The translations under genes and the position numbers were made by a program. 46,091 nucleotides of DNA from Okeania sp. SIO2B3 (GTDB lineage: Bacteria; Cyanobacteriota; Cyanobacteriia; Cyanobacteriales; Microcoleaceae), in the NCBI RefSeq assembly GCF_010672525.1, contig NZ_JAAHGH010000031.1, forward strand, positions 22,670 through 68,760, in the 5' to 3' direction. Positions 1 through 25,863 of the stretch are shown here, one piece after another (within the stretch, counting starts at the first letter, position 1; each line of letters opens with the position of its first letter). Below the pieces are notes generated by a model. It did no database searches, had not been told where the DNA came from, and saw only the letters and a program-made list of their open reading frames with translations.

Positions 1-485
1 AAAATCAGGAGAATGGTAGTAGTCAGCTGCGGGTATTGCCAGCACAAAAATTACGGTCTTACCTGAAGCAGAAGTTGCCAGAATATATGGTTCCGCTTAC
101 TTATGTTTTGCTTGAGGATTTACCTTTAACTGCTAATGGTAAAGTTGACCGTAAGGCATTGCCAGTAATCGATTTTGGCAGTCTGTCACAAGATTTTGTG
201 GCTCCGGAAACAGCAACGCAAAAGGAATTAGCACATATATGGGTACAAATTCTGGATCTAGAAAAGGTAGGTATACATGACAACTTCTTTGATTTGGGAG
301 ATTCCTTGATCGCGACTCAAATTGTGTCTCGAATTTGTGATACTTTTGAAGTCGAATTTCCTTTGATAAATTTGTTTGAGTCACCTACTATTCAAGAATT
401 ATCCAACATCATTGATAATATGATTTGGGCAGATTCGGCTACAGTTTCAGGCGATCGCGATATTTTAGAATCAGGAGAAATTTAA
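1..485 (+). CDS. NRPS, C-terminal fragment (end of A domain, PCP)
   Basis: This is the 3' end of a non-ribosomal peptide synthetase gene that starts left of the window. The frame is open back to base 3, so the TTG at 36 is not a real start. It shows the end of an adenylation domain (LPEYMVP, then core A10 NGKVDRKALP) and one peptidyl carrier domain (GIHDNFFDLGDSLIATQIV, whose Ser would carry phosphopantetheine). There is no epimerase or thioesterase after it, so the chain must pass to another protein. The last residues (DRDILESGEI) are acidic and could be the short linear motif that binds a TubC-type docking domain; such a domain opens the next protein. The carrier motif reads LGDSL where LGGDSL or LGGHSL is usual, so one glycine is missing just before the attachment Ser. 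The substrate cannot be read because the A-domain core lies outside the window. Confidence 0.93.
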   Translation, partial: NQENGSSQLRVLPAQKLRSYLKQKLPEYMVPLTYVLLEDLPLTANGKVDRKALPVIDFGSLSQDFVAPETATQKELAHIWVQILDLEKVGIHDNFFDLGDSLIATQIVSRICDTFEVEFPLINLFESPTIQELSNIIDNMIWADSATVSGDRDILESGEI

Positions 486-6900: not shown

Positions 6901-9900
6901 ACCCCTTCCGACTTTTCAGCAGTCGATCTGACTCAACCAGAGCTTGACAAGATAGTTGCCAAAATTAACAGCAAGAATATTGAATCGATCTACTCCCTTT
7001 CTCCAGGGCAAAAGGGGATACTATTTCACACTCTTTATGCTCCCGATACAGGAGTGTACATCGAGCAAATGTTAATCGGGTTTTCTGGAGAAGTGAATGT
7101 AGAAGCATTCAAACAAGCTTGGCAACAAGTAGTGCAGCGACATGGAGTTTTGCGTACTTTGTTTGTTTGGCAAGGTATTCGACAACCTTTGCAGGTAGTG
7201 CAAAAACAGGTTGAGTTGCCTTGGAGCTATCTAGATTGGCAAAACCTACCCTCCACAGAGCAAGAGCAAAACCTGGAAATGTTATTGAAAGCAGACCGTC
7301 AGCAAGGCTTTCAACTGGATCTGCCACCTCTAATGCGATTTACATTCATTCGGTTGAGCAATCTCAATTATAAGTTGCTCTGGAGCATAAACCATACCAT
7401 AATAGATGGTTGGTGCTGGCCGATAATTTTTAAAGATTTTCTCAGCTACTACCAATCTGATAACCAAGCTCAGAGTATTAATTTACCCCCTGTGCGCCCC
7501 TATCAAGATTATATTGCTTGGCTACAGCAACAAAACTCCAAGAATGCAGAAGAGTTTTGGCGAGAAAGTTTGCGAGGGTTTACAGAAGCTACACCATTAG
7601 CAGTAGAGCGATCGCCCAGACAGAGTTTATCACAACAATCTTCATCTTACAAAGAACAAAAACTGAGTCTAGGCACAACAACTACTCAACTCCTCCAATC
7701 ATTAGCTCGGCAGAATCGTCTGACAATGGCCACTCTAGTGCAAGGAGCTTGGGCTTTATTACTCAGTCGCTATAGTAACACATCAGATGTCCTTTTTGGG
7801 TTAACTGTTTCTGGTCGTCCAGCCAATTTGGTGGGAGTAGAAAATATGGTAGGAATGTTTATCAATACCTTGCCACTACGGGTGCAAGTACCAGCACAGA
7901 CAAAACTGATCGCCTGGTTACAGCAGTTAAACCAAAAACAGTTAGAGTTACAAGAATATTCTTACACTCCCTTAGTTGAAATTCAACGGTTGAGTGACAT
8001 TCCCGCTGGAGTTGCTCTATTTGATAGCATTTTAGCTTTTGAAAACTATCCCATAGATAGCTCTGGAGTACAGTCTAATTCTCCTCTACAGATAACAGGA
8101 TTAGAACCTTTTACAGAAACTCACTACCCCCTAACAGTAACATCAGTAGTAATGAATGCAGATTTACTGTTGAAGATTAGTTATGATACCAGTCGTTTTG
8201 CAACTGATACTATTGAGCGGATGTTAGGCCATCTCAAAACTTTGTTGACAGCAATGGTAACGACCCCAGATGTGGAGTTAGCTCAATTACCGCTGTTAAC
8301 AGAAGCAGAGCAACAGCAGTTGTTGGTAGAATGGAATCAAACAACAATAAATCCTTCAAATGATTCTAAGTGCATCCATCAGTTATTTGAGGAACAAGTG
8401 GAACGAACTCCCGATGCAATAGCAGTAGTATTTGAGGAACAAAAGCTAACTTACTTTGAGTTAAATAGTAAAGCAAATCAACTAGCTTGTTATCTGCAAA
8501 CCCTTGGTGTTCAATCAGATATGCCAGTTGGCCTTTGTGTAGAGCGGTCATTAGAAATGCTGATTGGCATTCTTGGTATTCTCAAAGCTGGAGGAGGCTA
8601 TGTTCCCATAGACCCCAACTATCCGGTAGAACGCATTGCATACATGATTGCTGATGCTGCTGTGCCAGTACTCCTGACGCAACAAAAATTAGTAGAAAAA
8701 TTACCAAGTCACGAGGCACAAATAATTTGTTTAGATGCCGCTTGGTCGGAAATTGCTCAAAATAATCCAGCTAATCTTCATAGTAACGTACAACCCCATC
8801 ATCTATCCTATATCATTTATACCTCTGGCTCCACAGGTCAACCTAAAGGGGTAATGATTCAACATGAAAATGTTACTCATCTATTTTCGGCAACGGAAAG
8901 TTGGTGTTCATTTAATTCTCAAGATGTCTGGACTCTGTTCCACTCCTTCGCTTTTGATTTCTCCGTTTGGGAAATCTGGGGACCATTATTGTATGGTGGA
9001 CGATTAGTTATCGTACCTTACTGGATTAGCCGTTCCCCTGATGCTTTCTATGAGTTACTTTGCCAAGAAAAAGTCACCATACTCAACCAAACACCTTCTG
9101 CTTTTGAGCAACTGATTTATATTGAGCAAAATTTGATTAAGTCAAGTAATCTTTCATTGCGACTGGTCATATTTGGCGGAGAAGCTTTAGACTTTCACAG
9201 TCTGCAACCCTGGTTTGAAAGCCACGGGGATCTTTCACCCCAGTTAGTTAATATGTATGGGATTACGGAAACAACAGTACACGTCACCCACTACCCTATT
9301 ACTTTGGCAAAACTTCAGGAGAACAAAGGCAGTGTCATTGGTCGCCCCATTGACAATATGCAAGCTTATGTGTTAGATCGGAACAGTCAGCTAATGCCAG
9401 TGGGCGTTCCTGGAGAGTTGTACATTGGTGGTGGTGGTGTGGCCAGGGGTTATCTGAATCGCCCTACACTCACTCAAGAAAAATTCATTCCTCATTTATT
9501 TAGTCAGCAACCAAATGCTCGCCTCTATAGGACGGGAGACTTAGCACGTTATTTACCAGATGGGAATATTGAATTTTTAGGTCGCATCGATCATCAAGTG
9601 AAGATTCGGGGTTTCCGCATTGAAACAGGAGAAATTGAAGCAACATTGGCTCAACATCCTCTAGTCAAACAAGTGGTTGTCGTTGCCCAAGAATATGAAA
9701 TCGGTAAAAAACAACTGGTGGCTTATATTGTTAGTGAGGATCTAACTTTCAATTCCCAAGAAATGCGTCAATTTTTACAAGAGCAAGTACCAGATTATAT
9801 GGTGCCATCAGCTTTTGTCAGGTTAGATGCTATACCTCTGACTCCTAATGGTAAAGTAGACCGCAAAGCTTTACCGCAACCAGACCGAAATTTGATGCAG

Positions 9901-11592
9901 ACAGAAGAATTTGTGGCTCCCAGCAATACAATAGAAAAAACTTTAGCTTCAATTTGGCAAGATATTCTTAATCTCCAAAAAGTTGGTATCCACGATAATT
10001 TCTTTGAGCTAGGAGGGGATTCTATTATTAGCATTCAAGTAGTCGCTCGCGCTCAAGAAGCAGATATTTCAATTACTGTTAAACAAGTCTTGGAATGTCA
10101 GACGATCGCTAAATTAGCAACTGTAGCTGGTTCGACAACTAAAATTTCTGCTCAACAAGGTTTAGTTACTGGAGAAGTACCTATAACTCCCATTCAACAT
10201 TGGTTTTTTGCCCAAAATCTACCTCAATCTCACCATTATAATCAATCTTTTCTCCTGAAAGTGTCTGCGAATCTTCAGCCAGAATTATTATCTATAGCTG
10301 TAGATAAATTATTAACTCACCATGATGCTTTACGGATGCGATTTTTGATGAAAGATACAACTTGGCAACAAATTAATGAGGCACAAGATGATAATACTAT
10401 TTTCCATCTTGTAGATTTATCCGAGGTGTCGCCAATAGAACAAACAAGTGTTTTAGAGGCAGCGATCGCCGAGCAACAACAAAGTCTGAATCTCTCCCAC
10501 GGTCCTCTGGTGCGAGTAGTTTTATATCAATTAAATCAAACAGAAGCTCGTTTACTATTAGTCATTCATCACCTAGCTGTGGATGGTGTCTCATGGCGAA
10601 TTTTGCTGGCAGACCTATTTTCAGCTTATGAACAATTGGAGAAAGGAGAACAGATACAACTACCCCCGAAAACTACAGCTTTTCAAGATTGGTCGATGCG
10701 TCTTTTAGACTACGGTCGTTCAGAAGCACCGCTAGAAGAATTAGATTATTGGTTGCACCACTCTGAGTCAAGTAAAACTCACTTACCCGTAGATTATACT
10801 GATGGCAAACCCAAGAATATTGTAGGCAGTACCAACTATGTATCTGTAAAACTCAGTGTAGAACAGACAACTGCGCTGTTGCAGGAAGTTCCCTCTGCTT
10901 ATAATACTCAGATTAATGATGTACTCTTGACTGCTTTAGTACAATGCTTAACTGAGTGGACAGGAGAATCAAATATTATTATCGATTTAGAAGGACATGG
11001 GCGAGAAGAACTGTTTGTGGATGTAGATTTATCACGCACAGTAGGTTGGTTTACCAGTATTTTTCCCGCAAGATTACAACAGTCCGCAAACAACGATCCT
11101 GGGGAAAGTCTAAAATCCATCAAAGAACAATTGCGAGCCATTCCTAATCGTGGCATTGGGTATGGAATTTTACGTTATCTGAGTACAGACAGCGAAATTC
11201 GTCGCCAATTAACAGATATTCCTCAAGCAGAAGTTAGTTTTAATTACTTGGGTCAATTTAACCAAGACCAGTCTCAAGAAGAAAGTTGGCAGTTTGCCTC
11301 TGAGTCAACGGGTTTAATCCAAAATTCTCAAGGCATTCGTTCCTATATATTAGATGTAACTGGATTGGTAGTAGAGGGTCAGTTAGGAATTAATTGGATT
11401 TACAGTAGTTATATCCATAAGCGTTCTACAATTGAAACTCTTGCACAAAAGTATATAGAAAATTTACAGGCATTGATTAGCCACTGTCAATCTCCAAATA
11501 CCGGAGGGTATACTCCTTCAGATTTTTCCGATCTAGATTTAACTCAAGAAAAACTAGACCAGATTTTAGCAGAAATAGAATTAGGGGAGTAA
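937..11592 (+). CDS. Two-module NRPS: TubC-C-A(Leu)-NMT-PCP-E-C-A(Thr)-PCP-E
   Basis: A 3551-aa megasynthase. In order: TubC-like docking domain (about 5-58); LCL-type condensation domain (77-510, HHIASDG near 209); adenylation domain 1 (from 539) with an N-methyltransferase (999-1250, EVGCGTG) inserted between cores A8 and A9; carrier 1 (Ser1492); epimerase 1 (1540-1985, HHLAVDG). Module 2 has a DCL-type condensation domain (2016-2450, NHTIIDG, first His replaced by Asn); adenylation domain 2 (2479-2975); carrier 2 (Ser3029); epimerase 2 (3075-3518). The C-terminus (TPSDFSDLDLTQEKLDQIL) looks like a communication-mediating donor segment. Aligning the binding pockets by eye with the GrsA positions gives DAWFLGNVV for A1 (the classic Leu code) and DFWNIGMVH for A2 (the classic Thr code). 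Predicted additions are N-methyl-D-Leu and D-Thr or D-allo-Thr. The ATG is preceded by AAAGG at normal spacing. Both DCL condensation domains in the cluster follow an epimerase, as expected. Confidence 0.96.
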   Translation: MNQENSNIQTFLTELRNLQIKLWLEGERLRYTAPQGTMTPELLQQIKEKKPEIIDFLKQVSRKTVTSIKPVSREQELPLSFAQQRLWFIEKTGLSGNAYNMPLTLHLVGKLDKIALQQSLDQIIARHETLRTTFSSIKDKAVQVIRPPFALLLPLQDLSELTPSQQIAQIQPLLQQEIEQPFNIEVEPPIRARLFQLGATEHVLLITLHHIASDGWSLNVLTSELSANYTSAVTKKPSPLSQLPIQYADFAVWQRNYLQGQTLETQIDYWKQKLKEIPQLQLPTDYPRPAVESFKGAGLPINLSPSLTSKLKQLTQQQGVTLFMTLLAGFKVLLHRYSGQEKIAVGSPIANRNRSEIEGLIGFFVNSLVMYTDLEGEPSFIEVIKRVRQTALEAYAHQDLPFEKLVEELQPERSLSKNPLFQVSFAVQQSGVGKPSFSLPNLDVSWYQGTGGEMTVRLDLELHLWVEGEEIKGLCAYNRDLFEAETINRMLSHYQNLLSAAVENPELPIGKLPLMSQTEQQQLLVEWNNTKTDYSSEKCIHELFESIVETTPDAVAVAFGAEKLTYSQLNRKANKLAHYLQKLGVGPEVLVGICVERSVEMIIGILSILKAGGAYVPLDPSYPQLRLNYMIEDAQLSVLLTQQQWLNYLPDTIESVICLDTDWEMISQESTENLGTLVTVDRFAYVIYTSGSTGQPKGVTIPHQGLLNLVFWHQRTFEVSPSDRASQIAGVGFDASVWEIWPYLSAGASLHLIDSETRLSAEELRDWLISEKISISFVPTPLLENLYVLEWPANIPLRTVLTGGDKLHHRPPASLPFRVVNNYGPTENTVVTTSVWVSPDPLSKLSPPIGKPISNTQVYILDSCLQPVPVGVPGELHIAGDGLATGYYNRPELTTAKFISNPFDRSKVTKLYKTGDLVRYLSDGNIEFLGRIDQQVKIRGFRIEIGEVEATLSQNPTVKETVVVAREDNPGDKRLVAYIVPENETTTANLELSDTQLKSWQEIFNQQVYSQLTQITDPLFNSEGWLSHYDNQPIPEVQMRVWAKDIVSQVLANKPQRVWEVGCGTGMLLFQIAPHAEVYYGTDISNVSLEYIQKQIAQHPDKYAHVTLAQKEAQDMADVSDNSFDVVLLSSIVQYFPSTDYLLEVIENSIRVVKSGGVIVLADIRSLPLMKAFHSSVELYKATPSLSANQLKERIDRLIQQENELFVSPEFFVALKEKYPEITHVQIRLQRGSELNELNKYRYSVFLHIQSQNKSAIATQISEKTGMSTGEIETYLREKQPESICFSSLVNSRVAADMSTVELLSQPDLKLNVQQFRQKLHQQQIETVDPEQLHQLSTKLGYKLELCWSPEGKIGDFDAVFVRDELAAEAIVLTPLTQQLIAETNWHRYGNNPLQTQTVKQLIPEWREYLEQRLPDYMVPSAFVVLAQLPLTPNGKIDRKALPAQDNTSTISTDFVAPQTPTQESLAQIWQQVLGLEQIGIHDNFFEIGGDSIISIQIVALAQKAGIKLTTKQLFQNQTIAEQAAVAGTIDIVQHQQGLVTGEIPLIPIQHWFFEQNLAEMHHFNQSFMLSVSPQLDPELLSTAVGKILEHHDVLRLRFHKTSKSWQQINYGKPESIPFQVVDLSKLSTPEQFNLLGQTAIEQQASLDLNNGPLIKVILFKLGSQTPGRLLIIVHHLAVDGVSWRILLEDLFEVYQQLEQKQTVQLPGKTTAFQDWAVRLLEYGQSQELQAQLDYWLNQPWDNVVSLPVDNADKKADNIVGNAVNISKSLTKEQTTALLQEVPSTYNTQINDVLLTALVISLADWMGTKTVSINLEGHGREELFPEVDLSRTVGWFTSIFPVQLQLSSADIGEALKSVKEQLRRIPDRGIGYGILRYMSQDEKIRTQLAALPHPEISFNYLGQFNNDRFQQLSWQGTEESAGANQSPQGNRAHLLDINALIVEGELQIIWTYNNSIHQDATITNLLEKYTEALQNIIVHCQSSLTGGFTPSDFSAVDLTQPELDKIVAKINSKNIESIYSLSPGQKGILFHTLYAPDTGVYIEQMLIGFSGEVNVEAFKQAWQQVVQRHGVLRTLFVWQGIRQPLQVVQKQVELPWSYLDWQNLPSTEQEQNLEMLLKADRQQGFQLDLPPLMRFTFIRLSNLNYKLLWSINHTIIDGWCWPIIFKDFLSYYQSDNQAQSINLPPVRPYQDYIAWLQQQNSKNAEEFWRESLRGFTEATPLAVERSPRQSLSQQSSSYKEQKLSLGTTTTQLLQSLARQNRLTMATLVQGAWALLLSRYSNTSDVLFGLTVSGRPANLVGVENMVGMFINTLPLRVQVPAQTKLIAWLQQLNQKQLELQEYSYTPLVEIQRLSDIPAGVALFDSILAFENYPIDSSGVQSNSPLQITGLEPFTETHYPLTVTSVVMNADLLLKISYDTSRFATDTIERMLGHLKTLLTAMVTTPDVELAQLPLLTEAEQQQLLVEWNQTTINPSNDSKCIHQLFEEQVERTPDAIAVVFEEQKLTYFELNSKANQLACYLQTLGVQSDMPVGLCVERSLEMLIGILGILKAGGGYVPIDPNYPVERIAYMIADAAVPVLLTQQKLVEKLPSHEAQIICLDAAWSEIAQNNPANLHSNVQPHHLSYIIYTSGSTGQPKGVMIQHENVTHLFSATESWCSFNSQDVWTLFHSFAFDFSVWEIWGPLLYGGRLVIVPYWISRSPDAFYELLCQEKVTILNQTPSAFEQLIYIEQNLIKSSNLSLRLVIFGGEALDFHSLQPWFESHGDLSPQLVNMYGITETTVHVTHYPITLAKLQENKGSVIGRPIDNMQAYVLDRNSQLMPVGVPGELYIGGGGVARGYLNRPTLTQEKFIPHLFSQQPNARLYRTGDLARYLPDGNIEFLGRIDHQVKIRGFRIETGEIEATLAQHPLVKQVVVVAQEYEIGKKQLVAYIVSEDLTFNSQEMRQFLQEQVPDYMVPSAFVRLDAIPLTPNGKVDRKALPQPDRNLMQTEEFVAPSNTIEKTLASIWQDILNLQKVGIHDNFFELGGDSIISIQVVARAQEADISITVKQVLECQTIAKLATVAGSTTKISAQQGLVTGEVPITPIQHWFFAQNLPQSHHYNQSFLLKVSANLQPELLSIAVDKLLTHHDALRMRFLMKDTTWQQINEAQDDNTIFHLVDLSEVSPIEQTSVLEAAIAEQQQSLNLSHGPLVRVVLYQLNQTEARLLLVIHHLAVDGVSWRILLADLFSAYEQLEKGEQIQLPPKTTAFQDWSMRLLDYGRSEAPLEELDYWLHHSESSKTHLPVDYTDGKPKNIVGSTNYVSVKLSVEQTTALLQEVPSAYNTQINDVLLTALVQCLTEWTGESNIIIDLEGHGREELFVDVDLSRTVGWFTSIFPARLQQSANNDPGESLKSIKEQLRAIPNRGIGYGILRYLSTDSEIRRQLTDIPQAEVSFNYLGQFNQDQSQEESWQFASESTGLIQNSQGIRSYILDVTGLVVEGQLGINWIYSSYIHKRSTIETLAQKYIENLQALISHCQSPNTGGYTPSDFSDLDLTQEKLDQILAEIELGE

Positions 11593-11916: not shown

Positions 11917-14496
11917 ATGAACACAAAAAAAATTGAAGCAATTTATCCTCTTTCTCCTTCACAACAGGGTATTCTCTTTGAGACTCTTGCCTCTCCTGGG
12001 TCAGGAATACATATTGAACAAACCGTTCTGAGTTTACAGGGAAATTTCAACCTAATAGCTTGGGAAAAAGCCTGGAAAATAATCATAGAGAGACACTCAA
12101 TTCTGAGAACTGGTTTTGTTTGGAAAAATCAAGACCAACCTGCTCAATTTGTTCTACAGACAGTGAAAATTCCACTGGAAACAGAAGACTGGCGAGAATT
12201 TTCACCCTCTCATCAAAAAGAAAAATTAACCGACTATATCCAGACAAAACGTCAGCAGGGGTTTAATCTTACTCAAGTACCGATTATGAGTTTAGCTCTT
12301 TTTCAAGTTGGTGACGATACTTATCAGTTTGTCTGGACATTTCATCACATTCTCTTGGATGGATGGTCTTTAGGAATAATTATGCAGGAAGTGCAGCAGT
12401 GCTACGAAGAATTGAGTCAGGGGCAAAATTTGTCATTAAAACCGACTCATCCTTATCGGAAATATATTACTTGGTTACAACAGCAGAATTTAGCAGCAGC
12501 TCAAACTTTTTGGCAAGACAGACTCAAGGGATTTACTAATCCAACTGCATTAGGGAAAACTGTTTCGGTAGATAATTGTGCTGTGCTAGAACAATCCTAT
12601 GGTCGGCAAACTGCTTATCTGTCAGCCTCAACTATGGCTAAACTACAGTCTTTAGTCAAACAAAATCGTCTGACTTTAAGTATTGTTTTACAAGGAGTAT
12701 GGGCTTTATTATTGAGTTGTTATAGTGGGGAGTTAGATGTAATTTTTGGTGCTTCTGTTTCTGGTCGTCCGTCTGAAATTTCTGGTATTGGATCAATGGC
12801 AGGAATGTTTATTAATACTGTTCCCATACGGTGTAAAATAGATCCTGATGCCTCTATTTGGAAATGGTTGCAAGAGATACAGCAGGAACAATTGCCACAA
12901 AAATCCTATGAATATTGTTCTCAAGGACAAATTCACAACTGGAGTGAATTATCAAGTTCTTTACCTATGTACGAGAGTATTTTGGTTGTCGAGAACTATC
13001 CAATTAATACATCAGCAGAACAAGTTCCTAGTCTGAAGATGAACCTCAATCAATCCTTTGCTCTAGGGGCGCAAACTAACTATCCTCTAACTATTCTTGC
13101 CATGCCTAGTTCTGAACTAGAGTTAGTTATGGTTTATCGCACACATCGATTTGATAATACCAGTATTATTCAAATTCTTGAGCATTTTCTGAATGTGTTA
13201 GAAAAAATTGCCCAAAAGCCAGAGTCAAACCTCTTTTCTCTCAAAAGTATAATTCCTGAAACTCAAATTCCAGAAGTCAAACCACAGCCTAAGTTAGATG
13301 GAGAACAGTTAACAGAAGGTTTTGTTCTACCTCGCGATCCGGTGGAAAGAAAATTGGCACAAATTTGGTCAGAAATTCTTGACCTGAAATTAGTAGGACT
13401 TCAAGACAATTTCTTTGCTCTTGGAGGTCATTCCATTTTAGCTGTGCGTTTAATGGCTGAAATTGAGAAACATTTTGGCAAAAATCTCCCCCTCGTCTCC
13501 TTATTTCTAGCTCCGACTATCGAACAACTTGCAGATGTTCTCCGTCAGTCAACAGATTCTATTTCTTGGTCTTCCCTTGTACCTATTCAACCTCGTGGGT
13601 CTCGGCCGCCTTTGTTTTTAGTCCCTGGAGGAGGAGGCAACGTCATCTATTTTTCTCAGTTAGCTAAATATTTTAGTTCAGACCAACCATTCTATGGTTT
13701 ACAGTCTGTTGGTCTGGATGGAGAATCAGAACCTCACACCAGAGTTGAGGACATAGCGGCTCACAATATTAGAGAAATACAATCAATTCAAGCTCAAGGT
13801 CCTTATCTTTTAGGAGGACATTCCTTTGGTGGTACAGTTGCTTTTGAAATGGCTCAACAGTTACACAAACAGGGACAAGAAGTAGCTTTATTAGCAATAA
13901 TAGATGTTGCTGCACCAGAACCTATAGAAAATCAAGTAAATCCATTTTTAGATTGTAACGATAATGCTCTGTGGTTAACTATAATTAGTGATTTTCTCGG
14001 CACTTTATTTGGCACAGATTTGATGTTGGGGGAGCCAGAAACATATTATCAAGCACTTACAAAACTGACTCCGGACGAACAATTTAACTATGTCTACGAT
14101 CGCCTGCAAGAAATTAGTTTTTTCCCTCCTGGAAAAGGCAGTAAACAACTTCATGGTTATCTGAATGTGATGAAGGGAAATGCTTTATGTTCTTATTTTC
14201 CAGAGACAGTTGCTCCTATTAAAATTAGTGTGTTTAACTGCAAAGAAAAATCGGCAGAAACGACAAAAGTTAATAGTTTGATAGCTAAAATTCTCACGGG
14301 TAAGGATAATTTTGATGAATCTATTCGTCCTAAAAATAGAAGCGCTCCTGATTTGGGATGGGGTCTTTTTTCTCCTAAAACAGTAGATATTTATGAAATT
14401 CCAGGAGATCATCTCTCAATGATAACGGAGCCAAATGTTCAAATTTTAGCTGAAAACCTGATGGCTTGCATTGAAAAAGCAAAAGCAAAAAAATAA
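11917..14496 (+). CDS. Terminal NRPS C-PCP-TE protein lacking an A domain
   Basis: An 859-aa protein. The N-terminus (IEAIYPLSPSQQGILF) is a DCL-type condensation domain that matches an upstream epimerase; HHILLDG is at 143-149 and the domain runs to about 440. A linker leads straight into a carrier domain (about 470-540, Ser506 in LGGHSILA), followed by a type I thioesterase (about 555-859). The thioesterase has GHSFGG (Ser636), a candidate Asp in IIDVAAP and a C-terminal His in GDHLSM. The region between condensation and carrier domains is only about 30 residues, so the usual 500-residue adenylation domain is truly absent and no frame carries a remnant. The protein therefore releases or cyclises the peptide, but its carrier must be loaded in trans or left unused. 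The first residues could be the acceptor for the donor tail of the preceding NRPS. The next gene starts 18 bp downstream, so the two are very likely co-transcribed. Confidence 0.95.
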   Translation: MNTKKIEAIYPLSPSQQGILFETLASPGSGIHIEQTVLSLQGNFNLIAWEKAWKIIIERHSILRTGFVWKNQDQPAQFVLQTVKIPLETEDWREFSPSHQKEKLTDYIQTKRQQGFNLTQVPIMSLALFQVGDDTYQFVWTFHHILLDGWSLGIIMQEVQQCYEELSQGQNLSLKPTHPYRKYITWLQQQNLAAAQTFWQDRLKGFTNPTALGKTVSVDNCAVLEQSYGRQTAYLSASTMAKLQSLVKQNRLTLSIVLQGVWALLLSCYSGELDVIFGASVSGRPSEISGIGSMAGMFINTVPIRCKIDPDASIWKWLQEIQQEQLPQKSYEYCSQGQIHNWSELSSSLPMYESILVVENYPINTSAEQVPSLKMNLNQSFALGAQTNYPLTILAMPSSELELVMVYRTHRFDNTSIIQILEHFLNVLEKIAQKPESNLFSLKSIIPETQIPEVKPQPKLDGEQLTEGFVLPRDPVERKLAQIWSEILDLKLVGLQDNFFALGGHSILAVRLMAEIEKHFGKNLPLVSLFLAPTIEQLADVLRQSTDSISWSSLVPIQPRGSRPPLFLVPGGGGNVIYFSQLAKYFSSDQPFYGLQSVGLDGESEPHTRVEDIAAHNIREIQSIQAQGPYLLGGHSFGGTVAFEMAQQLHKQGQEVALLAIIDVAAPEPIENQVNPFLDCNDNALWLTIISDFLGTLFGTDLMLGEPETYYQALTKLTPDEQFNYVYDRLQEISFFPPGKGSKQLHGYLNVMKGNALCSYFPETVAPIKISVFNCKEKSAETTKVNSLIAKILTGKDNFDESIRPKNRSAPDLGWGLFSPKTVDIYEIPGDHLSMITEPNVQILAENLMACIEKAKAKK

Positions 14497-14514: not shown

Positions 14515-17500
14515 ATGTTAGACTTAATCGATCGTTATGAACAAGGTTTTGTTTCTATTCCTGTAATTTTAGTTTGCAGACAAAAAGGGTTATTTGAATT
14601 ATTAAAACGTCAAAAAATGACCCATAAGCAAATAGCTGATGTTCTGGGAGCTAATACAGATAATTTACAAGTAGCTTTAAGAATGATGGAATCTCTAGGT
14701 TGGTTATCGAGAAATGAGGCTAATGAATACTTCTTTATAGAAAAATCTCAAGCTTACCTTTCGATTCCCAAAGACATCCTAGAGTTATATAATCTGCCCC
14801 TGGATTCATATTTACTAGGCAAAGAAAAACCAGGTTTTCTCAAAAATTGGCTTGCTCGTTCCCAGGAACAATGGCATCTTAAAGATCGAATTCTGGCAGA
14901 TTTCCTAGATGGGGTGCTAATAATATCAATTATGCTAGCACTGCACAAACATAATTTGTTAGTTTACCAGGAACAAGCTCCTTTATTTCCTAATTTGAAT
15001 ATCCTGGTGCGGGAAGAGTTGTCAGCACTGTTGATGATGAAAGGATTAGCGCAACCAAATGTCAGAATAGTTGAACAACAGAAGGAAAAGTCAATTCAGG
15101 ATGAAACAGGAACTACGGAAATTAACCTTGAAAACCCCATCTGTAGGGGCGAATGGCATTCGCCCTCACCAAATTTAGCATCTGTGCGTAAGTCCGGTGA
15201 AAATTATTTAGGTTTGACTGCTGTCGGTAAATCTCTAGTAGAGAGAACTCTAATCAGGAATATTAGTTTAAATTGTTTTGAGAACAAGTTTTACCAGTTG
15301 CGCCATCCCACAATTGAAGACTTACCAGATTTAATTGCACTAGAGGCATTATGTTGGCCAGAAAATATTCGGGTTGACAATGAGGAAATCCAGAGGCGAA
15401 TTTTACAGTATCCACAAGGACAGTTTGTTTTAGCAGTTGAGAATAAAATTATAGGTGCAATCTATTCCCAACGAATTAATAGCATTCAGCTTTTGGAGGG
15501 GAAAACTTATCTACAAGTGCCATCACTACATACTGAATCAGGAGATGTTATTCAACTTTTGGCAGTGAATATCTTGCCGGAAATGCAAAGTCAGGGATTA
15601 GGTGATCGCCTGCTAGAATTTATGCTTCAGTATTGTACATTGATGGGTAATGCGGAAAAAATTGTGGCAGTGACTCTTTGTCGCAACTATCAAGACCATT
15701 CCTCAATGTCAATCACAGAATATATCCATCATAAAAGTGAATCGGGGTTATTGGTAGACCAACTTTTGCGTTTCCATCAGCTTCATGGGGCAAAAATTCA
15801 GAAAGTTATGCCTGGATATCGTCCCCAAGATATAGAAAATCAAGGTTATGGGGTTTTAGTAGAGTATGATGTTCAACACCGTCAGCGTTTTGATAGTGTA
15901 ATAGTTGCTAAAAAACAGCCTGAGAAAGTCAAGCTAATAACAAATATAGATGAAATTGTGGCTGATTGTGTCAGGAAAGTGATGAACCCAAAATTCTCTT
16001 TAGACTCAAGTAGAGCGCTGATGGAGATGGGGATTGAATCCTTAGAATTATTAGAATTAAAATATTTATTAGAGAAAAAGCTTGAGGTAGAAATAGAGCC
16101 AAATTTCTTCTTTAAATATGGAACAGTAGAAGCGATCGCTAGTTATTTTAAAGGGGAAACACCAGTTACACAAAAGCAGAATTTTCAGTTATTACCAGAA
16201 CAAACAGCATTAGACACTATCTCATTCTCAAGCAAAGAAGAGATGCTAATCAAAAGACCGATAGGTGAATTAGAAAACGGGATAGCAATTATTGGTATAG
16301 CTTGTCGGTTCCCTGGAGGTGCTGATAACCCCCAAAAGTTTTGGTCATTGCTCCGTGATGGTATTGATGGAATTACGGAAGTACCTCCGAGTCGTTGGGA
16401 TATTGAACAATATTACCACCCCGATAAAAATCAACCAGGAAAAATATCCAGTCGTTATGGGGGTTTCATTTCTAATGTTGACAAATTTGATGCCGAATTT
16501 TTCCAAATTTCACCTCGTGAAGCTAAATACATAGACCCACAACAGCGAATTCTATTAGAAGAGAACTGGAAAGCATTAGAAAATGCGGGAATAAATCCAC
16601 AATCTCTAGCGGGAACAGAAACAGGAGTATTTGTGGGTCTTGCTTTCCATGATTATGAACAGCTACAGTACAAATATCGTCAGGATGAAGATTTAAACCT
16701 TCATTTTGCTACAGGTAGTTCTAGCGCTATCGGTGCCGGAAGATTATCCTACTTTTTCAAATTGAACGGACCATCAATAACAGTAGATACTGCTTGTTCT
16801 TCATCCTTGAGTGCGGTTCATTTAGCTTGTCAAAGTATACGCAATGGTGAATGTGAATTAGCTTTAGCATCAGGGGTGAATTTCTTGTTGTCTCCTGAAT
16901 TGAGTATTAGTTTTTCTCAAGCAGGGATGTTATCGCCAGATGGACGCTGTAAAACTTTTGATGCTTCTGCTAATGGTTATGTGCGGAGTGAAGGGTGTGG
17001 AGTTGTAGTCCTCAAATCTTGGCAACAGGCAATAGCAGATGGAGACCAGGTTTTAGCAGTTATCAGAGGCACGGCAATTAATCAGGATGGTGCTAGCAAT
17101 GGAATAACGGCACCAAATCAATCAGCTCAAGAAGCAGTGATTCAGAAAGCTTTGTCTGTCGCAGGAATTTCGGCAAACCAAGTATCTTATCTAGAAGCTC
17201 ATGGTACTGGTACATCCTTGGGAGACCCAGTGGAAATTAAAGCTGTGGAAGCAGTGTATGGAAAGAATCGTGGCATGGATCGACCTTTAACAATTGGTTC
17301 GGTGAAAACAATTATTGGTCATGCTGAAGCAGCAGCAGGTATTGCCGGGTTAATTAAGGTAGTGTTGTCACTGCAAAATAAATATATTCCCCCTCATTTA
17401 CATTTGCAAGAATTGAATCCTTATATTAGTTTGGCAGATATTCCTGGAGCGGTCCCCACTGAGGGGAAAGTGTGGGAAAAATATGATGGAGATGAGAGTT

Positions 17501-20500
17501 GTCTGGCAGCAGTAAGTTCTTTTGGTTTTAGTGGAACAAATGCTCACGTTATTGTGGAGGAAGTACCAACTCAGGTTAAGAGTCAAAAGCAAGAGAGAAA
17601 AGCTTATTTGTTAACTTTGTCAGCAAAAACTGAAAAAGCTCTGGATGAGTTAGTTAGTTGTTATCAAAATTATCTGGAAATTAATCCCGAATTAGAATTG
17701 GCAGATGTATGTTATACAGCTAACACTGGACGCGCTCACTTTAACCATCGACTCGCTGTTATTGCTTCAAACCAACAACAGTTAAGGGAAAAACTACAGC
17801 AACAAAAAGTAGGGGAAGAACTGGTGGGGGTGTTTTCAGGAAAACTATCCAATAGCAGTAGTTCTATACAAGTAGGATTTTTATTCACAGGTCAAGGTTC
17901 CCAGTATATCAACATGGGAAGGGAACTTTATCAAACTCAGCCTACTTTTCGTCAAGCTTTAGATAAATGTGACCAAATCCTAAGTCAGTATCTAGAACAT
18001 CCGCTCCTAGAAATTCTGTATCCTCAAGATGTACAAAACTTAAGTTCTTCTTTGCTAGACCAGACCGCTTATACTCAACCTGCTTTGTTTGCTATTGAGT
18101 ATGGTCTAGCTAAATTATGGGAATCTTGGGGGATTAAACCTAATGTAGTGATGGGTCACAGCGTGGGCGAATATGTGGCAGCTTGCGTTGCAGGAGTTTT
18201 CAGCTTGGAAGATGGTTTGAAATTAATTGCTACCCGCGGACAGTTGATGCAGCAGTTGCCCAGTGGTGGAGAAATGGTTTCTGTGATGGCATCAGAGTCT
18301 CAGGTAACAGAGGTTATAGGGAATTATAGTTCCCAAGTAACAAAAGCTGCTATTAATGGACCAGAAAGTGTGGTAATTTCTGGTGAGAGTCGAGCGATCG
18401 CTACTATTTGTAGTAAGCTAGACAGTATGGGAATCAAGACTAAGCGTTTACAGGTTTCTCATGCTTTCCATTCGCCGTTGATGGAACCTATGTTGTCTGA
18501 ATTTGAGGAAGTAGCGAAAGAAATTAGCTATAGTTTGCCTCAGATACCACTAATATCTAATGTCACTGGAGAACAAGTAACAGAGGAGATAACTCAAGCT
18601 GAATATTGGGTAAATCATGTTCGACAACCAGTGATGTTTGTCAAAAGCATGAAAACATTACACCAACAGGGGTATGAGTTATTTCTAGAAATCGGACCGA
18701 AACCAATATTATTGGGGATGGGAAGGCAATGTTTGCCTGGGGATGTAGGTTTATGGTTGCCTTCTTTGCGTCCGCAAAAAGGAGATTGGCAGCAGATGTT
18801 GGAGAGTTTGGGGCAGTTGTATGTCAAAGGGATGAAGATAAATTGGTTAGAATTTTACAAAGATTATCCTCACCAGAAAGTAGTGTTACCGACTTATCCA
18901 TTCCAGGGAAAACGGTATTGGTTGGATATTCAAACGAGCAATTATTGGAGTGAAGACAAAGGAACAAATTTAGAACAAAATACCTTACCTATTCAAGATA
19001 AATTTATGGAAATGAAAACACCAATAGAAACACACAAACGCCAAGAGAAAATCATAGCAGAAATTTGTGAAATTATCGCCAAGGAGTTAGGTTTTGAGGA
19101 ATCATCACAAATAGATATTCATAATCAACTGTTGGCGTTGGGAGCAGATTCCTTAACTTTCATAGCATTAGGAAAGAAGATAGAAAAAAACTATGGAATT
19201 AATATTACTATTCGCGAATTTTTTGAAGAATTAACAACAGTTGCTAATTTAGCAGAGTACATAGATAAAAATTTACCGCCTGAGTCAGAGGAAAAAGAGA
19301 CTCCTGAGCAGCGATCGCTACAACCGAAATCAGAAGAAGTTGTTGTGTTACAACAACTTCCCTCATCTAATCTAAAATTGACACCTGTCAAATCGGAGAT
19401 ATCGGGAGTACCAACTGTTATCGAAAGAATTATGGAGCAGCAACTCCAGGTTATGTCTCAGCAGTTAGAAGTTTTACAACAGAAGCAGATTTATGTATCG
19501 AACAATGAGCAACCTGTCTTAGATGATTCTCTTCACGAAATTCCACAACCAAAACTCAATCAGAACAAAAGAGAATATTCTGCTCCTCCAGTCAAACCAA
19601 AATCAAAATCTACTCCAACATCTCCTAAACTCCAACAAGAAATTTCAACCGTTAGTTTTGATAAATTATCACCCAGAGATTATTTACGAACTCCAGTAGA
19701 AATTGAGCAGCGACTCAACTCAATTCTGCCAGAATTAATTGCTCAGTCAGATTTAGACAGTTATCGGGAAATGCCAACTGAGCTAGAAAATTTGAGTGTA
19801 GATTACATAGTGCAGGGACTACAAGAAATGGGTTGGTCTTACCAACTAGGAGAAAGCTTTTCTACAGAATCAGCATTCCAAAAATTAGGTATAGTCAGCA
19901 ATCATCAGCGGTTGTTCAAACGTCTCCTAGAAATACTAGCAGAAGTAGGAATCTTACAGTTAAACCAGCAGCAATGGCAAGTAATGAAAACTTTAGAGGG
20001 AAATAATCCCAAAGAAAAAAGTCAAAAGTTATTGAACCAATATCCCAATGCTCACGCTGAACTTACCCTACTTCATCGCTGTGCTTCACAATTAAGTAGT
20101 GTACTGCAAGGAAAATTAAATCCATTAGAACTAATTTTCCCAGATGGAGACTTAACTACTGCAACTCAATTCTATCAAGAATCTCCTCCATCTCAGGTAA
20201 TGAACAATATTGCACAAAAAGCGATCGCTATAGCTATAGAGAAATTACCATCAGATCGTGGAGTAAGATTTTTGGAAATAGGAGCAGGTACTGGAGGGAC
20301 TACAAGTCATATTCTGCCTCATCTCAATCCCAGTCAAACCAAATATGTATTCACAGATATAGGAGGTTTTTTCAATGCCAGAGCTAGAGAGAAATTCCCA
20401 GATTACCCTTATATCTCTTATCAAACTCTAGACATTGAGAAAAATCCAAAAAATCAAGGGTTTGAGTCTCAGTCCTATGATATAATTATTGCTGCCAATG

Positions 20501-22305
20501 TGCTTCACGCTACCACTTCCATGAGCGAGACCTTATCCCACGTGCGACAACTGTTAGCACCAGGAGGAATATTAGTGTTGTGGGAAAAGACAACTCCCCA
20601 GAGGTTCTTAGATTTAATCTTTGGGTTATTAGAAGGATGGCAGAAATTCAGCGATCGAGACTTACGTCCTAATTATCCCTTACTAAGTAAATCCAAGTGG
20701 AAGCAATTCCTAAGTGAAAATGGTTTTACTCAAGTTGTCATTGTTCCTCAAATTGAGGGAACATCTACAGCTTTATCTCAAGAAGCAGTGATTATTGCTC
20801 AAGCAGAAGCAATGGGAGAAAAAAAAGTTCGTTCTCAGACTAGAACTGCCAATAAAATAGCACTGAATCAACAGCAACAGAGTTATCTAGAGAAATTTAT
20901 TACTACCTACACCAAAAAAACTCAAAAATCTAAGCAAACAGCTATAACTTGTCGTCCAGTGCTAGCGGATAAAAGACCAGCAGTAGGATTTCGCATTGAA
21001 CTCAAAGAAATCAAATATCCTATTATTGGAGAATCTTCCAGTGGTTCTCGAATATGGGATATTGACGGTAACGAATATATAGATATTTCTATGGGGTTTG
21101 GCGTACATCTTCTGGGTCATCAACCACCATTTATTACTGAAGCTCTGCAAAATCAAATCAAACAAGGAATGCAAATTGGTCCACAAGCTAAACTTGCTGG
21201 AGAAGTAGCGCAGTTAATTCACGAACTAACAGGTATGGAACGAGTTGCCTTCTGTAATTCTGGTACAGAAGCAGTTATGACTGCATTACGTTTAGCCAGA
21301 CTAGCTACAGGTCGTGACAAAATTGTGATCTTTAATGATTCTTATCACGGTCAATTTGATGGAGTTTTAGCTATGGCAACAAGCAACGAAAAAGAGATAG
21401 CATCAATGCCAGTACTACCTGGGATATTGCAACGTATGGTTGATGATGTAATAGTTCTAACTTATGGTACAAACGAATCCCTAGACATTCTCAAAACTCA
21501 TAGCGATGAATTAGCTGCTGTTCTGGTTGAACCCGTTCAAAGTCGGCGACTAGATTTACAACCAAAAGAATTTTTGCAACAAGTGAGACAATTTACGAAA
21601 AAAGCTGGTATTCCGCTAATTTTTGATGAAATAGTCACTGGTTTTCGTATTCATCAGGGAGGATCTCAGGCGTGGTTTGGTGTTGAAGCAGACATTGCTA
21701 CCTATGGTAAATGCGTAGGTGGTGGTACACCTATTGGGGTAATTGCTGGTAAAGCAAATTATATGAATGGTATAGATGGAGGTTTGTGGAATTATGGAGA
21801 TGACACCTATCCAGAAGCACTACAGACATTTTTCGCTGGAACTTTCAATAAAAATCCTTTAACCATGGCAGCAGCACGAGCAGTACTGCAACATTTGAAA
21901 AGTCAAGGAAAAGTATTACAAGAAAATCTAAATCAACGTACCTCAAAGTTTATAACAAGACTAAATACTTATTTTGAACAAGAGTATTTACCAATAAAAA
22001 TGATAAATTTTGGCTCAGTATTTAGGTTTGTACCATTAAGTAATTATAGCTATCTATCTCAACCAATAGAATTAGACATACTATTCTATAAACTAATAGA
22101 AAAGGGTGTTTATATGTGGGAAGGAAGAAACGGACCAGCTTGTTTTATTTCTACAGCTCATACAGATGAGGATATTGATTATATTATTTCTGCTGTCAAA
22201 GAAAGTGTATCAGAAATGCGTCAGGGCGGTTTTTTTCATAACAATAATCAGCAAAATTCTCAAACTAATGTCAGACAAACTGAGCGAGTCAAAGGAGCAT
22301 TATAG
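14515..22305 (+). CDS. PKS: AR-GNAT-ACP-KS-AT-ACP-CMT-aminotransferase
   Basis: A 2596-aa protein. A winged-helix adaptor region (about 1-240) and GNAT domain (258-465; Trp281, Thr387, FHQLHGA around 421-426, GYRP) followed by an ACP (Ser509) form a loading unit like that of CurA; related GNAT units occur in SxtA and AprA. In that family malonyl-CoA is decarboxylated and acetyl is put on the ACP. Next come a ketosynthase (589-1010; Cys761 in DTACSSS, HGTGT, GHAEAAAG), an acyltransferase (1121-1440; GHSVGEY Ser1216, HAFH 1316-1319, the malonyl signature), an ACP (Ser1546), a Pro/Gln-rich linker, a C-methyltransferase (about 1750-2085, EIGAGTGGTT) and a class III PLP aminotransferase (about 2150-2570; CNSGTEA, FDEIVTGFR, Lys2399 in YGKCVGGG) of the McyE/MycA type. 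No KR, DH or ER is seen. Inferred product: 2-methyl-3-aminobutanoyl-ACP. Unlike McyE there is no condensation domain after the aminotransferase. A dispersed repeat encodes about residues 210-218. Confidence 0.95.
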   Translation: MLDLIDRYEQGFVSIPVILVCRQKGLFELLKRQKMTHKQIADVLGANTDNLQVALRMMESLGWLSRNEANEYFFIEKSQAYLSIPKDILELYNLPLDSYLLGKEKPGFLKNWLARSQEQWHLKDRILADFLDGVLIISIMLALHKHNLLVYQEQAPLFPNLNILVREELSALLMMKGLAQPNVRIVEQQKEKSIQDETGTTEINLENPICRGEWHSPSPNLASVRKSGENYLGLTAVGKSLVERTLIRNISLNCFENKFYQLRHPTIEDLPDLIALEALCWPENIRVDNEEIQRRILQYPQGQFVLAVENKIIGAIYSQRINSIQLLEGKTYLQVPSLHTESGDVIQLLAVNILPEMQSQGLGDRLLEFMLQYCTLMGNAEKIVAVTLCRNYQDHSSMSITEYIHHKSESGLLVDQLLRFHQLHGAKIQKVMPGYRPQDIENQGYGVLVEYDVQHRQRFDSVIVAKKQPEKVKLITNIDEIVADCVRKVMNPKFSLDSSRALMEMGIESLELLELKYLLEKKLEVEIEPNFFFKYGTVEAIASYFKGETPVTQKQNFQLLPEQTALDTISFSSKEEMLIKRPIGELENGIAIIGIACRFPGGADNPQKFWSLLRDGIDGITEVPPSRWDIEQYYHPDKNQPGKISSRYGGFISNVDKFDAEFFQISPREAKYIDPQQRILLEENWKALENAGINPQSLAGTETGVFVGLAFHDYEQLQYKYRQDEDLNLHFATGSSSAIGAGRLSYFFKLNGPSITVDTACSSSLSAVHLACQSIRNGECELALASGVNFLLSPELSISFSQAGMLSPDGRCKTFDASANGYVRSEGCGVVVLKSWQQAIADGDQVLAVIRGTAINQDGASNGITAPNQSAQEAVIQKALSVAGISANQVSYLEAHGTGTSLGDPVEIKAVEAVYGKNRGMDRPLTIGSVKTIIGHAEAAAGIAGLIKVVLSLQNKYIPPHLHLQELNPYISLADIPGAVPTEGKVWEKYDGDESCLAAVSSFGFSGTNAHVIVEEVPTQVKSQKQERKAYLLTLSAKTEKALDELVSCYQNYLEINPELELADVCYTANTGRAHFNHRLAVIASNQQQLREKLQQQKVGEELVGVFSGKLSNSSSSIQVGFLFTGQGSQYINMGRELYQTQPTFRQALDKCDQILSQYLEHPLLEILYPQDVQNLSSSLLDQTAYTQPALFAIEYGLAKLWESWGIKPNVVMGHSVGEYVAACVAGVFSLEDGLKLIATRGQLMQQLPSGGEMVSVMASESQVTEVIGNYSSQVTKAAINGPESVVISGESRAIATICSKLDSMGIKTKRLQVSHAFHSPLMEPMLSEFEEVAKEISYSLPQIPLISNVTGEQVTEEITQAEYWVNHVRQPVMFVKSMKTLHQQGYELFLEIGPKPILLGMGRQCLPGDVGLWLPSLRPQKGDWQQMLESLGQLYVKGMKINWLEFYKDYPHQKVVLPTYPFQGKRYWLDIQTSNYWSEDKGTNLEQNTLPIQDKFMEMKTPIETHKRQEKIIAEICEIIAKELGFEESSQIDIHNQLLALGADSLTFIALGKKIEKNYGINITIREFFEELTTVANLAEYIDKNLPPESEEKETPEQRSLQPKSEEVVVLQQLPSSNLKLTPVKSEISGVPTVIERIMEQQLQVMSQQLEVLQQKQIYVSNNEQPVLDDSLHEIPQPKLNQNKREYSAPPVKPKSKSTPTSPKLQQEISTVSFDKLSPRDYLRTPVEIEQRLNSILPELIAQSDLDSYREMPTELENLSVDYIVQGLQEMGWSYQLGESFSTESAFQKLGIVSNHQRLFKRLLEILAEVGILQLNQQQWQVMKTLEGNNPKEKSQKLLNQYPNAHAELTLLHRCASQLSSVLQGKLNPLELIFPDGDLTTATQFYQESPPSQVMNNIAQKAIAIAIEKLPSDRGVRFLEIGAGTGGTTSHILPHLNPSQTKYVFTDIGGFFNARAREKFPDYPYISYQTLDIEKNPKNQGFESQSYDIIIAANVLHATTSMSETLSHVRQLLAPGGILVLWEKTTPQRFLDLIFGLLEGWQKFSDRDLRPNYPLLSKSKWKQFLSENGFTQVVIVPQIEGTSTALSQEAVIIAQAEAMGEKKVRSQTRTANKIALNQQQQSYLEKFITTYTKKTQKSKQTAITCRPVLADKRPAVGFRIELKEIKYPIIGESSSGSRIWDIDGNEYIDISMGFGVHLLGHQPPFITEALQNQIKQGMQIGPQAKLAGEVAQLIHELTGMERVAFCNSGTEAVMTALRLARLATGRDKIVIFNDSYHGQFDGVLAMATSNEKEIASMPVLPGILQRMVDDVIVLTYGTNESLDILKTHSDELAAVLVEPVQSRRLDLQPKEFLQQVRQFTKKAGIPLIFDEIVTGFRIHQGGSQAWFGVEADIATYGKCVGGGTPIGVIAGKANYMNGIDGGLWNYGDDTYPEALQTFFAGTFNKNPLTMAAARAVLQHLKSQGKVLQENLNQRTSKFITRLNTYFEQEYLPIKMINFGSVFRFVPLSNYSYLSQPIELDILFYKLIEKGVYMWEGRNGPACFISTAHTDEDIDYIISAVKESVSEMRQGGFFHNNNQQNSQTNVRQTERVKGAL
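15143..15165. repeat. Dispersed palindrome inserted in frame in the PKS gene
   Basis: GGGCGAATGGCATTCGCCC (from 15147) with a leading GTAG is the same element found at 22793-22815, 25796-25818 and 27948-27970. Here it encodes part of CRGEWHSPSP in the adaptor-GNAT linker without disturbing the frame. Confidence 0.85.
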
Positions 22306-22337: not shown

Positions 22338-22418
22338 GTGGGTTGTCTCCCCCTCCTGGGAGGGGTTAGGGGTGGGTTGTCTCCCCCTCCTGGGAGGGGT
22401 TAGGGGTGGGTTGTCTCC
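22338..22418. repeat. 34-bp tandem GC-rich hairpin repeat
   Basis: GTGGGTTGTCTCCCCCTCC... repeats with a 34-bp period (starts at 22338, 22372 and 22406; two full units plus part of a third). Each unit contains CCCCTCCTGGGAGGGG. It lies between the convergent PKS (+) and NTPase (-) genes and may serve as a bidirectional terminator, though it belongs to a dispersed family. The flank at 22411-22440 also resembles the interior of family B elements. Confidence 0.7.
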
Positions 22419-22452
22419 TACCCCTACTAAAAGACTTTTATCGTAGAGAATA

Positions 22453-25739: not shown

Positions 25740-25795
25740 AATATTACTCCTTTCTAAGAAACTCAAGACTTATACAGAAGCACTATATCTAGTTA

Positions 25796-25818: not shown

Positions 25819-25863
25819 AGATGGCGTATAATTCAGTTCCATGTAGCACTTCCAGAACAACCT

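What the first reader, a model, noticed from the sequence alone, without database searches (positions are those of the whole stretch)
11917..14496. Terminal C-PCP-TE module with no adenylation domain
The condensation domain leads directly to the carrier and thioesterase. The carrier cannot load itself. Syringomycin SyrE is the known precedent: its last module lacks an A domain and is charged in trans. Here the gene 18 bp downstream encodes a PKS that ends with an amine-bearing acyl-ACP and has no obvious acceptor. A testable model is that this beta-amino acyl unit is the missing last residue, condensed with the D-Thr-peptidyl chain.
Basis: partly seen in the sequence, partly recalled or inferred. 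Interest (0 to 1): 0.75.

Follow-up and report, generated by a model that had tools for sequence, protein, structure and literature searches.

The report
Peptide release module lacking a loader
The last unit of a cyanobacterial peptide-making enzyme really has no part for choosing an amino acid; the rest of the machine appears to account for every building block of a known marine compound (grassypeptolide), so this unit probably only hands over the chain and closes the ring.

Summary
In detail: window 11917-14496 is an intact 859-aa C-PCP-TE protein without an A domain.

Contig C183 joins the window's contig by a 127-nt exact overlap. The full line then encodes Maba, a hydroxy acid, N-Me-Val, Pro, N-Me-Phe-thiazoline, an unassigned residue with thiazoline, N-Me-D-Leu and D-Thr. 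Units, order and N-methyl pattern fit grassypeptolide A, and the genome shares a genus with an Okeania. Two further R centres of that compound have no E domain here.

The neighbouring PKS (Maba) most likely starts the chain: in an Okeania and a Symploca its gene overlaps the gene of the hydroxy-acid module, and both docking parts are kept here.

Unexpected: this C domain belongs to a separate clade (100/100). The 17 best C-domain matches in 388 genomes all follow an E domain and lack an A domain; of 14 further loci fetched, 13 have one.

Best reading: a non-elongating relay for the D-configured chain. Trans-loading stays open; internal clade members hint at it.

The parts
11917..13254 (+). Condensation domain of the A-less terminal module (HHILLDG); member of the A-less clade
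13327..13551 (+). Carrier (PCP) domain, GGHS serine intact
13597..14493 (+). Thioesterase domain, GHSFGG; PCP-TE 62% identical to that of the genome's second cluster on C101
937..11592 (+). Preceding NRPS: TubC-C-A(Leu)-N-MT-PCP-E-C-A(Thr)-PCP-E; ends with the E domain (10183-11493) that precedes the A-less module
3..485 (+). C-terminal end (PCP) of the second thiazoline NRPS; the rest lies upstream on C175 beyond a 100-N run at C175:22570-22669
14515..22305 (+). Loading PKS: AprA_N-WH-GNAT-ACP-KS-AT-ACP-cMT-AMT; inferred 2-methyl-3-aminobutyryl (Maba) starter
22192..22302 (+). C-terminal tail of the PKS (ends ERVKGAL), conserved with Okeania and Symploca PKSs (ERVRGAL) whose genes overlap the hydroxy-acid module gene; probable docking tail

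Best explanation
The C-PCP-TE protein is the release module of a grassypeptolide-type synthetase and adds no residue. Maba made by the PKS at 14515-22305 starts the chain and docks onto the C-A-KR-PCP protein on contig C183, which adds a hydroxy acid by ester bond (phenyllactate in grassypeptolide). The chain then passes N-Me-Val, Pro, N-Me-Phe-thiazoline, (Aba site)-thiazoline, N-Me-D-Leu and D-allo-Thr. The E domain at the end of protein 937-11592 presents the D-configured chain; the A-less C domain accepts that epimer and passes it to its own empty holo-PCP (thiol as acceptor); the TE closes the 31-membered ring by joining the Thr carboxyl to the Maba amine. Shown here by sequence: domain content, contig overlap, codes, N-MT motif states, docking conservation, clade. 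Inferred: the product, the thiol transfer, the D selection, the ring-closing bond.
For: Contig join: C183 (reverse) end equals C175 start over 127 nt, in frame. Codes: Val DALWLGGTFK, Pro-like DVQFIAQVVK, Phe DAWTVAAVCK, Cys DLYNLSLIWK twice, DTWWFGGTFK (no assignment, Aba position), Leu DAWFLGNVVK, Thr DFWNIGMVHK (residue names recalled, Leu also in PMC7524897, passages). N-MT motif I: GCG[TS]G at Val, Phe, Leu; GCRTG at Pro and at the Aba position, 5 of 5 as in grassypeptolide. E domains after Leu and Thr; grassypeptolide D has D-allo-Thr at C-7 and N-Me-D-Leu at C-11, and A is also 7R,11R (PMC7345825, passages). Grassypeptolide A: C56H79N9O10S2, 31-membered, Maba (PMC12502043, passages); my hand sum gives this formula for these ten units (Val and Pro as units are recalled). 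Same genus as the Okeania sp. SIO2C9 genome (G002 and G313 show the same hit coordinates); grassypeptolide A is from Okeania lorea (PMC5450538, passages). The genome's C101 cluster reads as dolastatin 12/lyngbyastatin-like (reading recalled), and both families are reported from one Leptolyngbya (PMC7600079, PMC8225149, passages). Starter role of Maba. A-less clade: 15 rows are one side of a 100/100 branch against 13 other DCL-type rows; the 17 best C-only places are A-less after E, 13 of 14 further fetched loci have A.
Against: I know of no C domain shown to hand a chain to a bare carrier thiol; chemistry favours an amine acceptor. In internal members of the clade (E | C-PCP-C) the next C is LCL-like (3 in the tree, the rest by best seed) and should refuse a D-configured donor, which suggests a trans-loaded L or achiral unit there. 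An aminotransferase like the PKS's lies on the same contig in 11 of 17 A-less loci, the window included, which a pure relay does not explain. Product match: grassypeptolide A is also R at C-25 and C-29, centres by the thiazolines for which no E domain is seen here (such centres can epimerise without enzyme; recalled); D and E carry a methyl-thiazoline for which I see no methyltransferase. The product of this genome is unknown.
Confidence: 0.57

Rival explanations
1. One reading: Maba is moved from the PKS ACP to this PCP, the C domain joins D-Thr-peptidyl to the Maba amine, and the TE closes the ring by ester formation onto the hydroxyl of the first unit (the hydroxy acid on C183).
For: Gives the same grassypeptolide ring; uses ordinary C chemistry (D donor, amine acceptor); PKS gene is 18 bp downstream; aminotransferases of this kind lie on the contig of 11 of 17 A-less loci, the window included.
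Against: The C183 hydroxy-acid protein keeps a TubC docking domain and HHIINDG, which a first module would not need; PKS tail conserved with relatives where the PKS gene overlaps the gene of that protein; six A-less loci have no such aminotransferase on their contig, two of these genomes none at the threshold used. No carrier-to-carrier transferase among the seven flanking window ORFs scanned; no genome-wide search for one was made.
Confidence: 0.16
2. An A domain of another module of the line charges this PCP in trans (as CmnA-A1 charges CmnI), so the product carries one more residue than grassypeptolide, or is a relative.
For: Precedent in capreomycin (PMC12400406, passages); internal clade members followed by LCL-like C domains.
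Against: The ten encoded units already match grassypeptolide A in number and formula (partly recalled).
Confidence: 0.16
3. SyrB1/SyrC type: a dedicated stand-alone A-T protein and shuttle load the PCP.
For: Same C-T-TE layout as SyrE module 9 (PMC8949500, passages).
Against: Of 38 AMP-binding places in the genome, 28 lie in NRPS modules; the other 10 match acyl-CoA ligase, acetate-CoA ligase, MenE or fatty acyl-AMP ligase models best (some below the curated cut-offs), and where TIGR01733 is listed it is below its cut-off (best 25 families per protein shown). An A4-like Asp motif was absent in the 7 of 10 that my pattern could evaluate.
Confidence: 0.05
4. The module is a relic: the TE acts in trans on the upstream PCP, or the A-less C domain itself closes the ring with the Maba amine.
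For: C domains can release chains with free amines (glidonin module 13, PMC10587159, passages).
Against: Motifs of C, PCP and TE intact and low dN/dS in all three parts; the A-less layout is found at 17 loci.
Confidence: 0.06

Closest known systems
SyrE terminal module (syringomycin), C-T-TE charged by SyrB1/SyrC
   Same: C-PCP-TE without A at the end of a line
   Different: no stand-alone A-T partner recognised in this genome; no residue seems left to add; this module follows an E domain
CmnI/VioI A-less module charged by another module's A domain
   Same: A-less module inside a working line
   Different: there a residue is added; here the count leaves none except Maba
Glidonin termination module 13 (C-A*-T-TE)
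   Same: terminal module without a working A domain; C and T essential there
   Different: there putrescine is the acceptor and a partial A remains; here a ring product is expected and no A match is seen
KS0 non-elongating PKS modules (recalled; the term also appears in PMC12628792, passages)
   Same: works like: would pass a chain without extension
   Different: NRPS C domain, not KS; I know of no tested NRPS counterpart
Grassypeptolide family
   Same: number and kind of units, N-methyl pattern, E domains at Leu and Thr, two Cy-Cys modules, genus
   Different: no cluster paper in the listings searched; Aba-position code unassigned; R centres at C-25 and C-29 of A without an E domain; no methyl-thiazoline step as in D/E; compound not shown in this strain

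Membership tests
Grassypeptolide assembly line | Ten units incl. Maba, hydroxy acid and two thiazolines | tested here: met
   published units; Val and Pro as units recalled
Grassypeptolide assembly line | N-methylation at Val, Phe, Leu and not at Pro, Aba | tested here: met
   MT motif I intact in 3, changed in 2
Grassypeptolide assembly line | D-configured Leu and allo-Thr | tested here: met
   E domains in these two modules, in no other module seen
Grassypeptolide assembly line | R configuration at C-25 and C-29 (grassypeptolide A) | tested here: not met
   no E domain in the Phe and Aba-position modules; non-enzymatic epimerisation beside thiazolines is possible (recalled)
Grassypeptolide assembly line | Phenyllactate as hydroxy acid; Aba at fourth residue | tested here: inconclusive
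   C-A-KR-PCP present but its code was not obtained; DTWWFGGTFK has no assignment
Grassypeptolide assembly line | Compound made by this strain | not testable with these tools
   no chemistry available
SyrE-type trans-charged terminal module | C-T-TE without A | tested here: met
SyrE-type trans-charged terminal module | Stand-alone A-T partner | tested here: not met
   (draft genome)
SyrE-type trans-charged terminal module | SyrC-like aminoacyltransferase | not tested
   no genome-wide search was made
AprA/CurA-type GNAT loading PKS with AMT (beta-amino starter) | AprA_N, GNAT, ACP, KS, AT, ACP, cMT, AMT, no KR | tested here: met
   active-site motifs
Beta-hairpin (TubC) docking pair PKS tail / hydroxy-acid protein | TubC_N on acceptor, conserved short tail on donor | tested here: met
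   binding itself not testable
D-L condensation domain (DCL) after E | E domain upstream; groups with DCL rows | tested here: met
   but in its own A-less subclade

The most novel reading that the evidence does not exclude
Cyanobacteria carry a distinct clade of condensation domains that sit after an epimerisation domain in modules without an A domain. In the TE-ending branch these are non-elongating relays: an NRPS counterpart of KS0, in which the C domain moves the D-configured chain onto an empty carrier and so acts as a stereochemical gate before ring closure. The clade has fixed marks (Gly337, Tyr352, one inserted residue at 384 in 16 of 16 rows, against 0 of 26 ordinary DCL rows) near what I recall as C motifs 6-7.
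Probability: 0.43. Interest if true: 0.75.

Novelty: new variant of a known kind. Interest (0 to 1): 0.62.

Why it matters
It links a marine cytotoxic depsipeptide family to a candidate gene cluster, which the papers listed in my searches do not report. It also suggests that the missing A domain is not an accident of one cluster but goes with a separate C-domain lineage, so that 'A domain missing' need not mean 'residue loaded in trans'. This affects structure prediction from gene clusters and can be tested by one in vitro assay.

Tried and rejected
Rejected: A domain deleted only in this genome (Symploca has the same 859-aa layout; the apparent 3.9-kb match joined other pieces). Rejected: SyrB1-like loader. 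Considered and not kept: that the internal clade members are laxaphycin or cyanochelin lines; in the passages I saw of the laxaphycin, cyanochelin B, lusichelin and fatuamide papers no such A-less module is described. The first automatic code extraction gave incomplete codes and was replaced by an alignment; the hydroxy-acid A-domain code was not obtained. Whether Symploca contigs C439 (PKS-AMT) and C146 (A-less module) belong together is unproven: both end inside an A domain without overlap. E-before-C in the clade is partly expected, because homologues of a DCL domain follow E by nature; the informative part is the lack of A. Limits of the searches: one search scored only 2 and only 4 candidates per genome, and the 388 genomes are a sample of the order. 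The 14 further loci are 14 of the next 16 places (one per genome). The TE census (105 TE entries, some loci counted twice, 14 with an unidentified stretch before the carrier) shows no E directly before a TE or its carrier, but the set is biased to relatives of this TE. Fixed differences are expected to some degree in any old clade. Dropped before counts: G296:C718 (fragment, C from residue 215, contig of 3.6 kb), three places at 36-38% identity in 834-842-aa frames (G296:C381, G359, G324; A-less by span, not fetched or examined) and five PCP-TE-only places; L168 was left out. The tree has 15 of the 17 A-less C domains (G026 and G363:C84 not in it); its 13 other DCL rows are 10 E-C-A, 2 C-A at a start and 1 PCP-C at a locus end. 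No structure prediction was run.

Full report
Observation. Window 11917-14496 (+) encodes 859 aa with Condensation, PP-binding and Thioesterase matches and no AMP-binding match. Active-site motifs of the three domains are intact.

The whole line. The window is C175:22670-68760 of a 10.0-Mb, 249-contig genome. Upstream on C175 lie three more NRPS genes. The start of C175 equals the reverse end of C183 over 127 nt, in frame; two other NRPS contig ends tested (C106, C219) do not overlap it. C183 adds a 2009-aa TubC-C-A-KR-PCP protein and the front of the next module. The line reads: C-A-KR-PCP (hydroxy acid) | TubC-C-A(Val)-MT-PCP-C-A(Pro)-MT*-PCP | C-A(Phe)-MT-PCP-Cy-A(Cys)-PCP | C-A(unassigned)-MT*-PCP-Cy-A(Cys)-PCP | C-A(Leu)-MT-PCP-E-C-A(Thr)-PCP-E | C-PCP-TE, plus the PKS GNAT-ACP-KS-AT-ACP-cMT-AMT. 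MT* marks N-methyltransferases with GCRTG in motif I; the other three read GCG[TS]G.

Match to grassypeptolide. Reviews give grassypeptolide A as C56H79N9O10S2, 31-membered, with Maba (PMC12502043, passages); an N-Me-Phe-thn-Aba-thn segment (PMC7600079, passages); Pla, Maba, and in grassypeptolide D D-allo-Thr at C-7 and N-Me-D-Leu at C-11, A being 7R,11R,25R,29R (PMC7345825, passages). N-Me-Val and Pro as further units are recalled; with them my hand sum of ten units gives that formula and 31 ring atoms. That Maba sits between Thr and Pla is inferred from the atom numbering. The unit order and the N-methyl pattern (5 of 5) fit. E domains stand only in the Leu and Thr modules; the R centres at C-25 and C-29 of A are therefore unexplained, and D/E carry a methyl-thiazoline for which no extra methyltransferase is seen. 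The genome shares a genus with G313, which by identical hit coordinates is G002, the genome of Okeania sp. SIO2C9 locus L013; grassypeptolide A comes from Okeania lorea (PMC5450538, passages). A second cluster (C101: PKS-AMT fused to C-A-KR-PCP, then Gly, Leu, Gly, Val, Phe/Tyr-like, Ala, PKS, Ala, TE) looks like the dolastatin 12/lyngbyastatin family (recalled), reported with grassypeptolides D/E from one Leptolyngbya strain (PMC7600079, PMC8225149, passages). PMC8225149 (2021) says the clusters of these compounds had not been studied in that strain. The listings of searches (40 of 45 papers shown; 20 of 54; 12 of 32) show no title on a grassypeptolide cluster.

Maba is probably the starter. 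Two AprA_N PKSs were found in the genome: C101, where AMT is fused ahead of the C domain, and the window's. In Okeania L101 and Symploca L099 the PKS-AMT frame overlaps the frame of the C-A-KR-PCP protein (DNA seen for Okeania). The window PKS ends ...ERVKGAL, theirs ERVRGAL; its DNA ends gagcgagtcaaaggagcattaTAG where Okeania reads gagcgagtgagaggtgcattATGA, the ATG being the start of the next gene. This looks like a move of the PKS gene away from its old place. The C183 protein keeps TubC_N and HHIINDG. So the PKS has a fitting acceptor, and the terminal module seems to have no residue left to add.

The A-less clade. With P0002 as query, 22 of 388 genomes of the order match at E <= 1e-130, 26 places (2 candidates scored per genome): 17 begin at the C domain and run into the PCP without an A insert at 45-100% identity, one is a fragment, three more at 36-38% were not examined, five are PCP-TE only. 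With the C domain alone (4 candidates scored per genome), the best 17 places are those 17 (48-100% identity); a gap follows. Sixteen fetched loci (L150-L165) and G363:C84 (L186) show E, then C-PCP without A (in G349 about 1.1 kb lie between E and C); of 14 further fetched loci (L166-L179, 14 of the next 16 places) 13 show E-C-A and one E-C followed by a C-like domain. In a tree of 51 C domains the 15 A-less rows are one side of a 100/100 branch, with 13 other DCL-type rows outside, several from the same genomes. Gly337, Tyr352 and one extra residue at 384 are in 16 of 16 A-less rows and none of 26 ordinary ones. Downstream partners are TE (window, Symploca, G356, G026, G095, G078, G267, G346, G363:C34: 9) or another C (G150, G104, G349, G176, G154, G355, G203, G363:C84: 8); TauD follows that C in G176, not in G150, and by length probably in G154, G355, G203 and G363:C84.

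How it may work. For the window the count leaves three main readings: relay, Maba as last unit, or an extra residue loaded by a resident A domain. The relay fits the starter evidence and the TE branch, where a compact line such as G026 (FAAL-ACP-KS-AT | ACP-AMT-C-A-PCP-E | C-PCP-TE) shows no spare loader on the stretch fetched. Against it stand the LCL-like C after the internal members and the aminotransferases on the same contig in 11 of 17 loci, the window included (E <= 1e-60); G095 and G078 have none in the genome at that threshold, and for Symploca, G267, G346 and G363:C34 it lies on another contig. I give the relay 0.57 for this locus and 0.43 as a rule for the TE branch.

Membership. 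It has SyrE's layout but the A-T partner was not found: of 38 AMP-binding places 28 lie in NRPS modules, and the other ten match acyl-CoA, acetate, MenE or fatty acyl-AMP ligase models best (best 25 families per protein shown). SyrC was not searched for. So it is not filed as a SyrE-type module.

Noticed in passing
G000:C101 (L091-L093): A second PKS/NRPS line in the same genome, GNAT-loaded beta-amino starter fused to a hydroxy-acid module, with codes and an internal PKS that fit the dolastatin 12/lyngbyastatin family.
   Followed up: partly
L006, L010, L012 (Cyanobacteria UBA8803, Symploca SIO3C6 and SIO2E9): A different kind of stand-alone C-PCP-TE (LCL-type C, about 900 aa) with a separate AMP-binding-like ORF of 514-532 aa nearby (22-27% identity to the A seed, family not checked); a better candidate for trans-loading than the window's module.
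   Followed up: partly
L142-L149, L186-L189: Lines with E | C-PCP-C (TauD in some), then a C-like domain without HHxxxDG (6 of 6 such lines checked, plus G356) ahead of an Asp-type A domain, and a free-standing class-III aminotransferase of 463-527 aa on the contig at 8 of 8 loci; look like beta-hydroxy-Asp siderophore lines of unknown product.
   Followed up: partly
L013:10001-11189 (Okeania sp. SIO2C9): The C-A-PCP-TE gene closest to the window's PCP-TE (77% over residues 463-655) is interrupted by a frame break in the TE.
   Followed up: no
L001:6723-7400 (P0005): Tandem in-frame repeats (DGEGECHSPIQMEVSN-like units) inside the first condensation domain of P0005; a shorter run in P0004 near L001:1870-2049.
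   Followed up: no
window 22338-22419: Short direct repeats (ggggttaggggtgggttgtctcc) just after the PKS stop, at the likely breakpoint of the PKS gene move.
   Followed up: no
window 22453-27423 and 35902-39147: AAA, WD40-repeat and NACHT-type (NNH5) genes on the minus strand next to the cluster; a CHAT/TPR protein further on.
   Followed up: no
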